In this document: positions 54,787 through 56,583 of the stretch, one piece after another | Numbering within the stretch: position 1 is the first letter of the stretch | Layout: every line of letters starts with the position of its first letter | DNA from: Bacteroidota bacterium | GTDB lineage: Bacteria; Bacteroidota; Bacteroidia; AKYH767-A; 2013-40CM-41-45 | DNA length: 64,000 bases | Reading direction: 5' to 3' | Assembly (NCBI GenBank): GCA_026391945.1 | Contig: JAPLDA010000061.1 | Coordinates: 1-64,000, forward strand | Made by a program: the position numbers and the translations under genes | Notes under the pieces: generated by a model | Databases searched by the model: none | What the model was told of the DNA's origin: nothing | What the model saw: the letters and a program-made list of their open reading frames with translations, nothing else

Positions 54787-55278
54787 ATGAAAAAAACCTA
54801 CGTCCAGTCTGAGTTTCTTGAATTCGATTCAGTTGATGAGTTAGCTGAAGAAGACAGGAAGCTGGTTTATGAAGCCAGGAAAACTGCTCATGATGCCTAT
54901 GCCCCCTACTCGAATTTTCATGTCGGCGCCATTGTCCTCCTCGTAAACGGAGTAACGGTGATCGGCAACAACCAGGAAAATGCATCGTATCCTCTCGGTT
55001 TGTGTGCTGAACGTGTTGCCATTTTTGCTGCAGGCGCCACCTATCCCGGGATAAAAATAAAATCGATTGCCATCACAGCTTCATCAGACCAGTTCAACAT
55101 CGACCAGCCTGTTGCACCTTGCGGAGCCTGCAGGCAGGCCATTGCAGAATACGAGCACCGGTACCAGCATCCGATACGATTGATTTTAACAGGCGAATCA
55201 GGGAAGGTACTCGTAGCAGATGGTATTAAAAACTTTTTGCCACACCTTTTTGACGGTGATAGCCTGAAGGCGAAATAA
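54787..55278 (+). CDS. cdd: Cytidine deaminase
   Basis: Deaminates cytidine and deoxycytidine to uridine forms in salvage. The 163-residue protein has the zinc-binding CAE (73-75, Cys73 and catalytic Glu75) and PCGAC (111-115, Cys112 and Cys115), so the zinc is held by three cysteines as in the homotetrameric class. The YAPYSNFHVGA block (about 38-48) is typical. Linkage of cdd with porV and the pdh genes is common in Bacteroidota. A MITE-like element follows it. Confidence 0.95.
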   Translation: MKKTYVQSEFLEFDSVDELAEEDRKLVYEARKTAHDAYAPYSNFHVGAIVLLVNGVTVIGNNQENASYPLGLCAERVAIFAAGATYPGIKIKSIAITASSDQFNIDQPVAPCGACRQAIAEYEHRYQHPIRLILTGESGKVLVADGIKNFLPHLFDGDSLKAK

Positions 55279-55338
55279 TGCCGTTCCATTTTCCGGAAAA
55301 AATTCAAAACCGTTTAGCTCCTTTTTCTTTTTTCAATA

Positions 55339-55526
55339 AGAAACTGTTTAAAATTTATCTACAAATTGTTTATGCGTCTTTTTGCCTGCCTGCCGGTAGG
55401 CAGGGCTGCGACTTCCTCAGAGTTTCTTGCCGTAGTTAGTTCCACTATGGCTTTCTGCCTTAGGCGGATTGTCTCGCTCAAAAATACGCGATAAACATTT
55501 TTACAATATAAATTTAAACAGTTTCT
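55339..55526. mobile_element. 188-bp MITE-like element with 4-bp target duplication
   Basis: Terminal inverted repeats start AGAAACTGTTTAAA on the left (from 55339) and end with its complement TTTAAACAGTTTCT on the right (to 55526); imperfect similarity extends inward about 40 bp. The element is flanked by the direct repeat AATA (55335-55338 and 55527-55530), a likely target-site duplication. The interior is non-coding and structured: CTGCCTGCC-GGTAGGCAG (55386-55403) and GCCGTAGT ... ACTATGGC with a 7-base loop (near 55430-55452). No transposase is encoded, so it would depend on one elsewhere. Confidence 0.75.
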
Positions 55527-55531
55527 AATAT

Positions 55532-55539
55532 TATCTTTG
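55532..55539 (+). promoter_or_regulatory. Putative -7 box of the pdhA promoter, next to the MITE
   Basis: TATCTTTG matches TAnnTTTG and lies 27 bases before the pdhA ATG, two bases downstream of the target duplication of the MITE-like element. The -33 region therefore falls inside the right terminal repeat of the element. Confidence 0.6.
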
Positions 55540-55566
55540 CCCGGTTGAAAATTTCTTCACCGAATC

Positions 55567-56583
55567 ATGCAACCTGAAGTACAAGTCATGCCGAAAACAA
55601 AATTTACAAAAGAACATTACCTGAGGTGGTACGAAGACATGCTGCTCATGCGCAAGTTTGAAGAACGCGCCGGGCAGTTGTATGGTATGCAGAAGATCAA
55701 AGGCTTTTGCCACCTATACATCGGCCAGGAAGCTGTGGTAGCGGGGGCCATGACCGTTTTGAAAAAAGAAGATGCGATGATCACAGCGTACCGTGATCAC
55801 GGGCATGCACTGGCAAAAGGCGTTTCCGCGAATGCAGTGATGGCTGAACTGTACGGAAAAATCACCGGCTGCTCGAAAGGAAAAGGCGGATCGATGCACA
55901 TGTTTTCGGATGAACACCGTTTCTTCGGCGGACATGGAATTGTAGGCGGACAAATTCCGCTGGGCGCCGGCATTGCCTTCGCCGAAAAATACAACGGAAC
56001 CAAAAATGTTTGTGTTTGTTACATGGGCGATGGAGCCGTGCGGCAGGGCGCTTTACACGAAGCGTTTAACATGTCGATGCTCTGGAAACTGCCTGTTGTT
56101 TTTGTGATCGAAAATAATAATTACGCCATGGGAACATCGGTGGAACGAACCAGCAATGTAACGGAACTATATAAAATCGGTCTTGCTTATGACATGCCTT
56201 CAGAACCCGTGGATGGAATGAGCGTGGAAGCCGTTCATGACGCCATGGAGAAAGCAGTACAGCGTGCAAGAGACGGTAAAGGACCTTCCCTTCTTGAGAT
56301 CAACACGTATCGTTACAAAGGACATTCGATGAGTGATCCTGCCAAATACAGAACCAAGGAAGAAGTAGAATCCTATAAGGCGAAAGACCCGGTTGAAATG
56401 GTTTTGAAAACGATCCGTGAAAAAAAATTAGCGACCGAAACCCAACTGGAAGAAATAGATTTACGAATTAAAAAAATCGTAGAAGACTCTGTTCAGTTTG
56501 CTGAAGAATCTCCCTATCCGGATGCATCGGAACTATATAAAGATGTGTATGTGCAGGAAGATTATCCTTATATTACCGAGTGA
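55567..56583 (+). CDS. pdhA: Pyruvate dehydrogenase E1 component, alpha subunit
   Basis: Decarboxylates pyruvate using thiamine diphosphate and passes the acetyl group to E2. The 338-residue subunit has the ThDP motif from GDGAVRQG (154-161) to IENNNYAMGT (181-190) and the phosphorylation-loop-like YRYKGHSMSDPAKYR (about 252-266). The beta subunit gene is not adjacent. In Bacteroidota pdhA and pdhC are often together with pdhB elsewhere. A second in-frame ATG at 55588 (MPKTKFT) is a possible start; the 55567 ATG suits the -7 box. Confidence 0.94.
   Translation: MQPEVQVMPKTKFTKEHYLRWYEDMLLMRKFEERAGQLYGMQKIKGFCHLYIGQEAVVAGAMTVLKKEDAMITAYRDHGHALAKGVSANAVMAELYGKITGCSKGKGGSMHMFSDEHRFFGGHGIVGGQIPLGAGIAFAEKYNGTKNVCVCYMGDGAVRQGALHEAFNMSMLWKLPVVFVIENNNYAMGTSVERTSNVTELYKIGLAYDMPSEPVDGMSVEAVHDAMEKAVQRARDGKGPSLLEINTYRYKGHSMSDPAKYRTKEEVESYKAKDPVEMVLKTIREKKLATETQLEEIDLRIKKIVEDSVQFAEESPYPDASELYKDVYVQEDYPYITE

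What the first reader, a model, noticed from the sequence alone, without database searches (positions are those of the whole stretch)
55335..55530. MITE-like element inserted at the pdhA promoter
A 188-bp non-coding element with 14-bp perfect terminal repeats (about 40 bp imperfect) and a flanking 4-bp duplication AATA. The right end stops two bases before the pdhA -7 box, so the insertion replaced the native -33 region and the promoter now uses element-derived sequence. This could change expression of the pyruvate dehydrogenase genes or provide the current promoter. The interior holds two hairpins that may be transcribed.
Basis: partly seen in the sequence, partly recalled or inferred. Interest (0 to 1): 0.65.

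Follow-up and report, generated by a model that had tools for sequence, protein, structure and literature searches.

The report
Widespread hairpin-forming mobile DNA repeat
The small insert in front of the pyruvate dehydrogenase gene is a worn copy of a jumping DNA repeat about 162 letters long that folds on itself into one long hairpin; relatives of it turn up in many bacteria of the same class, where the hairpin shape has been kept while the letters changed, which suggests the shape itself matters.

Summary
The element is real: 55340-55525 (186 bp), 13-bp terminal repeats GAAACTGTTTAAA, target duplication TAA (not AATA). It is a MITE with IS5-type ends; a second full copy lies elsewhere in the genome, and a same-family genome carries an IS5-family transposase ending in the same 13 bp. 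The promoter claim is weak: the pdhA -7 box is conserved in 11 of 11 family genomes, a -33 TTG occurs in 1 of 11, and the insertion sits outside the -7 box. The larger finding is the family. A covariance model built from five copies hits 28 of 395 genomes of the class (25 with both loop motifs by a loose test), usually 158-164 nt, up to seven scored copies per genome, TNA duplications, mostly intergenic. The whole element is one imperfect hairpin. On a sequence-only alignment of 56 copies, 33 of 39 consensus pairs change on both sides while staying paired, and two internal-loop motifs stay nearly fixed. Wobble G-T mismatches outnumber A-C 130 to 59, pointing to a folded single strand, probably RNA. 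No Rfam match; motif strings found no relevant paper. I read it as an ERIC/RUP-like structured MITE family, apparently undescribed. The window copy is decayed.

The parts
55340..55525 (-). Hairpin MITE, 186 bp; the strand on which the family's structure is conserved is the minus strand
   Evidence: R1 133.8 bits on -, 39.9 on +
55340..55352 (+). Left terminal inverted repeat GAAACTGTTTAAA
55513..55525 (-). Right terminal inverted repeat, exact reverse complement of the left
55337..55339 (.). Target duplication TAA, left copy
55526..55528 (.). Target duplication TAA, right copy
55383..55402 (.). 20-nt palindrome present in the window copy, absent from the C43 copy
55532..55539 (+). pdhA -7 box TATCTTTG, native and conserved in the family, outside the element
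55567..56583 (+). pdhA (pyruvate dehydrogenase E1 alpha) ORF, the downstream neighbour; name by recalled similarity
54787..55278 (+). Upstream neighbour ORF, cytidine deaminase-like by eye (recalled, no family search run)

Best explanation
The element is a decayed copy of a widespread non-autonomous transposable element about 162 bp long. SHOWN: it has IS5-type 13-bp ends and TNA target duplications, it is multicopy and mostly intergenic in many genomes of the class, and its whole length is one imperfect hairpin whose pairs covary while two internal-loop motifs (CGAGGC-type in the 5' arm, AACGAAG-type in the 3' arm) stay nearly fixed. INFERRED: an IS5-family transposase acting in trans on the ends moves it; after insertion the element is transcribed, from neighbouring or internal promoters, and the folded RNA of one strand is what selection sees, most likely as a cis-acting structured RNA (RNase III-type processing, mRNA stabilisation, or binding of a protein at the conserved internal loop). 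In the window the element landed 3 bp outside the conserved pdhA -7 box and left it intact; it carries no intrinsic terminator or sigma-70-type promoter by consensus scan, so its effect on pdhA is probably small. This copy has a broken tip stem and an extra palindrome and is probably no longer active.
For: Ends and TNA duplication: 48 of 93 copies identical TNA, 56 of 93 TNA on both sides. Tips pair at 11 or more of 13 bases in 82 of 93 although tip sequence varies. Recent movement: identical elements at different places with their own duplications in G107, G264 and G081. Possible mobiliser: in same-family G005 an IS5-family transposase (NF033580, 172.7 bits, cut-off 110) ends 8 bp from the same 13-bp tip. 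Family: 28 of 395 genomes. Length 158-164 in 83 of 93 copies; both loop motifs by a loose pattern in 80 of 93 copies and 27 of 30 genomes. Structure: 33 of 39 pairs with both-side changes, 95.2% of cells paired against 36-54% when slid, 0 of 500 shuffles reach it; the five seeds, not chosen by a structure model, also covary (16 of 61 pairs, 0 of 500). Strand: wobble 130 against A-C 59 in a symmetric arm alignment, 23 genomes against 3; same direction in all three score classes and 100 against 43 when de-duplicated. Promoter. No terminator or sigma-70 match.
Against: No transcript has been seen. The five seed copies alone show no strand bias (5 wobble, 6 A-C, from the per-genome rows). A wobble excess could partly come from finding copies with a model that favours G-U, though it holds in the top score class (26 to 15). 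No IS5_3 transposase was found in G000, Pelobium or UBA4416, and only 6 of 28 searched genomes had any match at E 1e-10 (4 over the cut-off), so the mobiliser in most hosts is unknown. The IS found in G081 has different ends, and those in G346 match only loosely. Genes downstream on the folded strand are not significantly favoured (tandem contexts 30 to 17, p 0.08). Both window-genome copies lack the consensus loop letters, so the window copy itself may have no function.
Confidence: 0.7

Rival explanations
1. The palindrome matters only as DNA: a MITE whose arms are kept alike by template switching or conversion between inverted arms, or whose cruciform helps transposition; no RNA function.
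For: It has clear transposon features; contexts show no significant orientation preference; the DNA fold is also strong (z -6.6); seed copies show no wobble excess.
Against: Arm homogenisation should erase the mismatched internal loops, yet they stay at the same places with nearly fixed letters while flanking stems change. The wobble excess of 130 to 59 is not expected from a process that treats both strands alike.
Confidence: 0.3
2. The insertion rewired the pdhA promoter.
For: The element ends 6 bp from the -7 box, so all sequence in the -33 region is element-derived.
Against: No conserved -33 exists in the family (TTG in 1 of 11) and none arises in the window. The -7 box is intact. No sigma-70-type match or terminator in 55280-55600.
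Confidence: 0.12
3. The covariance model collects unrelated hairpin MITEs that merely share IS5-type ends.
For: Unrelated 123-bp and 165-bp MITEs with the same ends in G005 reach 22-30 bits, and L137 in G120 (33.5 bits) carries another repeat inside similar ends.
Against: Most members score 45-184 bits, have constant length, and share fixed loop motifs in 80 of 93.
Confidence: 0.05
4. A fixed regulatory element native to pdhA.
For: Position next to the promoter.
Against: Not found at pdhA in the 10 other family genomes; other copies sit at other places.
Confidence: 0.02

Closest known systems
ERIC (enterobacterial repetitive intergenic consensus)
   Same: Intergenic, multicopy; filed among prokaryotic MITEs (passages of PMC10969869). 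Recalled: a 127-bp imperfect palindrome with no known transposase gene.
   Different: Different phylum, sequence and length (ERIC side recalled). Here the ends are IS5-type with TNA duplications.
RUP and BOX elements of Streptococcus pneumoniae
   Same: Small repeats, tightly folded with their TIRs paired to one another; RUP has TIRs like those of IS630-Spn1 (passages of PMC3049150).
   Different: RUP TIRs resemble an IS630-type element, here IS5-type. Here the same fold spans many families of a class rather than close relatives.
Correia elements (NEMIS) of Neisseria
   Same: MITE whose transcripts are cleaved by RNase III at the TIRs (passage of PMC10969869); a model for what a folded MITE transcript can do.
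   Different: No processing shown here; sequences were not compared.
BrickBuilt and other IS5-end MITEs of Porphyromonas gingivalis
   Same: Bacteroidota host (recalled), TIRs matching IS5-family ISPg elements (passages of PMC4596501).
   Different: BrickBuilt is built of 23-nt tandem repeats with different tips (GAGACCTTTGCA-type) and is not described as a conserved hairpin in the passages I read.

Membership tests
MITE | Short, no transposase gene | tested here: met
   186 bp, no ORF of 60 aa or more inside
MITE | Terminal inverted repeats | tested here: met
   13 bp perfect here; 11 or more of 13 in 82 of 93 copies
MITE | Target site duplication | tested here: met
   TAA here; identical TNA in 48 of 93
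MITE | Several copies per genome at different places | tested here: met
   2 full copies plus remnants here; up to 7 scored copies elsewhere, identical copies with different flanks
IS5-derived MITE | Ends match an autonomous IS5-family element in the same genome | tested here: not met
   No IS5_3 transposase in G000; two PF01609 hits without a pair of matching ends in the stretch read; the match is in same-family genome G005
IS5-derived MITE | TNA target as in the IS1031/ISL2 groups of IS5 (group rule recalled, from no call) | tested here: met
ERIC | Imperfect palindrome over the whole element | tested here: met
ERIC | ERIC consensus sequence and enterobacterial host range | not tested
   No ERIC sequence was fetched or compared; hosts found here are of the window's class, plus Pelobium and UBA4416
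Rfam RNA families | Match above a family's gathering score | tested here: not met
   0 matches in 8 loci; only sub-threshold chance-like matches in 3 loci
Intrinsic terminator | GC-rich stem followed by a T run | tested here: not met
   0 found in 55280-55600
Functional structured RNA | Covarying pairs | tested here: met
   33 of 39 pairs, 0 of 500 shuffles
Functional structured RNA | Transcription | not testable with these tools
   No RNA-seq available

The most novel reading that the evidence does not exclude
The family is a mobile structured RNA: a hairpin RNA module with a conserved internal loop, probably a binding site for a host or transposase-linked factor, that spreads between genes and between bacterial families inside IS5-type ends and puts new genes under the control of that loop.
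Probability: 0.3. Interest if true: 0.8.

Novelty: new variant of a known kind. Interest (0 to 1): 0.6.

Why it matters
A repeat of constant length and fold, kept by compensating changes across at least a dozen host families, is rare evidence that a MITE is held by selection on its structure and not only copied. If the folded strand is an RNA, every copy is a ready-made regulatory hairpin dropped between genes, and the many copies per genome make its effect testable by ordinary RNA-seq. The covariance model and alignment here give a way to annotate it; no Rfam family matched it.

Tried and rejected
Fixed pdhA regulatory element: rejected, not found upstream of pdhA in the 10 other family genomes. 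AATA duplication: rejected in favour of TNA. Finding the mobiliser: two PF01609 hits in the own genome have no pair of matching ends in the stretch read; IS5_3 matches elsewhere mostly lack matching ends. Phage, plasmid and viral collections: no match with the queries tried. A core present without its ends: of the 16 weaker or partial matches fetched, I printed 15 (L227 not printed); the partial ones were truncated by contig ends or decay, not a separate cassette. Gene orientation as a clue to function: no significant bias. Rfam: none. Literature: five topic searches (listings) and two sequence-string searches (the second, of six strings, gave 2 unrelated papers) showed no description of this family; this covers only the open library, so absence from print is not proved.

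Rows left out: one search lists 109 matches at 106 places; 90 places went into the 93-copy set (with 3), 16 did not and were read separately. Alignment A4 holds 56 of the 93; the 37 left out are near-identical copies, copies with long inserts (the window copy and L093 among them) and several others (G387, G290, G120 among them). The wobble count used 87 distinct sequences of the 93. The gene-context count classed 87 as intergenic, 3 as overlapping an ORF and 3 as unusable; ORFs were called mechanically.

Full report
OBSERVATION. The window lies in G000 (114 contigs). The element is 55340-55525, 186 bp, with perfect 13-bp ends and TAA on each side. No ORF of 60 aa or more lies in it. The own genome has one more full copy (C43, 164 bp, 78% identical, TAA on both sides) and two one-ended remnants.

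WHERE THE ENDS COME FROM. A genome of the same family, G005, has other MITEs with the same 13-bp end but a different interior (123 bp and 165 bp; every complete copy seen has an identical TNA duplication) and an IS5-family transposase whose reading frame stops 8 bp from the same tip (NCBIfam NF033580 at 172.7 bits, cut-off 110; Pfam PF01609). G000 itself has no such transposase.

THE FAMILY. A pattern scan of one genome per species found full-length homologues in Pelobium manganitolerans (two copies; Bacteroidota) and the MAG UBA4416. The subterminal parts of these five copies (two own, three from the scan) are nearly identical, the tips differ in a paired way, and the middles differ yet still pair. 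The UBA4416 copy is flanked by a 5-bp repeat TTACA rather than a TNA, and one Pelobium copy has TAA on one side and TTA on the other. A covariance model from the five matched 28 of 395 genomes of the window's class at E 0.001 or better, 14 of 197 genera. At most seven candidates per genome were scored, so copy numbers are lower bounds. Of 93 copies read in full, 83 are 158-164 nt. By a loose pattern 80 of 93 copies, in 27 of 30 genomes and 14 host groups, have both loop motifs; G120, G290 and G387 do not and are doubtful members. Unrelated hairpin MITEs with the same tips score 22-30 bits, so matches under about 40 bits prove little.

MOBILITY. Identical TNA triplets flank 48 of 93 copies against 2-3 at control offsets. 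Identical elements occur at different places in G107, G264 and G081, each with its own duplication. One pair, in G044 and G158, is identical including the flanks and so was probably inherited in place. 87 of 90 usable copies are intergenic. Twenty-three gene ends have their stop codon at or overlapping the element edge, as expected when a stop such as TAA is the target.

THE HAIRPIN. The copies folded one by one pair over their whole length. On a MAFFT alignment of 56 copies made without structure, 33 of 39 consensus pairs have both-side changes, 95.2% of cells pair against 36-54% for slid partners, and no shuffle of 500 reaches any of the five measures. The consensus was derived from the same alignment, which favours it somewhat over slid versions. 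The five seeds, found by sequence, covary too (16 of 61 pairs). The most fixed interior letters include AGGC in the 5' arm and AACGAA in the 3' arm, which lie at the internal loop, while stems around them change. In an arm alignment that gives wobble no credit, wobble mismatches number 130 and A-C 59; 23 genomes against 3 lean that way. The lean holds in each score class (26:15, 16:8, 88:36) and after de-duplication (100:43, p 2e-6). The five seeds alone do not show it (5:6). I take this as moderate evidence for a folded single strand, probably RNA, on the window's minus strand. A TAnnTTTG promoter-like box occurs at element positions 39-41 on that strand (24 matches over 93 copies) and seldom on the other strand (5 matches in all); this is a lead only.

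pdhA PROMOTER. The -7 box is TATCTTTG in 10 of 11 and TATATTTG in 1 of 11 genomes of the family; a TTG 16-23 bp upstream exists in 1 of 11 and not in the window. The TAnnTTTG/TTTG consensus, and the failure to find the -33 part in Flavobacterium johnsoniae, are stated in passages of PMC7366714. So the insertion left the only conserved part untouched. Scans found no sigma-70-type promoter or terminator.

WHAT IT WORKS LIKE. It resembles ERIC, RUP/BOX and Correia repeats: small MITEs that fold with their ends paired and can alter transcripts (passages of PMC10969869 and PMC3049150). It is filed as a MITE. An autonomous partner in the same genome was not found, so 'IS5-derived' rests on ends, target rule and the G005 relative.

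LIMITS. Host names of G genomes are hidden. That the window is from Bacteroidota is inferred from its promoters, from Pelobium and from recalled gene similarities. Function of the RNA is not shown.

Noticed in passing
window 55383-55402; L223, L228, L231, L232, L093: Small palindromes (CCTGCC...GGCAGG type and others) are inserted inside several copies of the hairpin. The window's 20-nt palindrome class (pattern with up to 1 mismatch) occurs in 10 of 42 genomes of the order.
   Followed up: partly
G006:C3:806674-806948: The same palindrome class occurs four times at 85-nt spacing, which looks like a tandem array.
   Followed up: no
G005, L027, L030-L034, L061: A second and third MITE type (123 bp and 165 bp) use the same 13-bp ends with other interiors.
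   Followed up: partly
L137 (G120) 1501-1684: IS5-type ends enclosing a different repeat interior (GTCATTGCGAGG-type), a separate MITE.
   Followed up: no
23 gene ends in 22 loci, e.g. L159, L180, L186: The element often sits with a gene's stop codon at or overlapping its edge, so that the duplicated TNA can restore the stop.
   Followed up: partly
G081:C69:192085-192840: A decayed IS5-family transposase frame with in-frame stops and ends unlike the MITE's.
   Followed up: no
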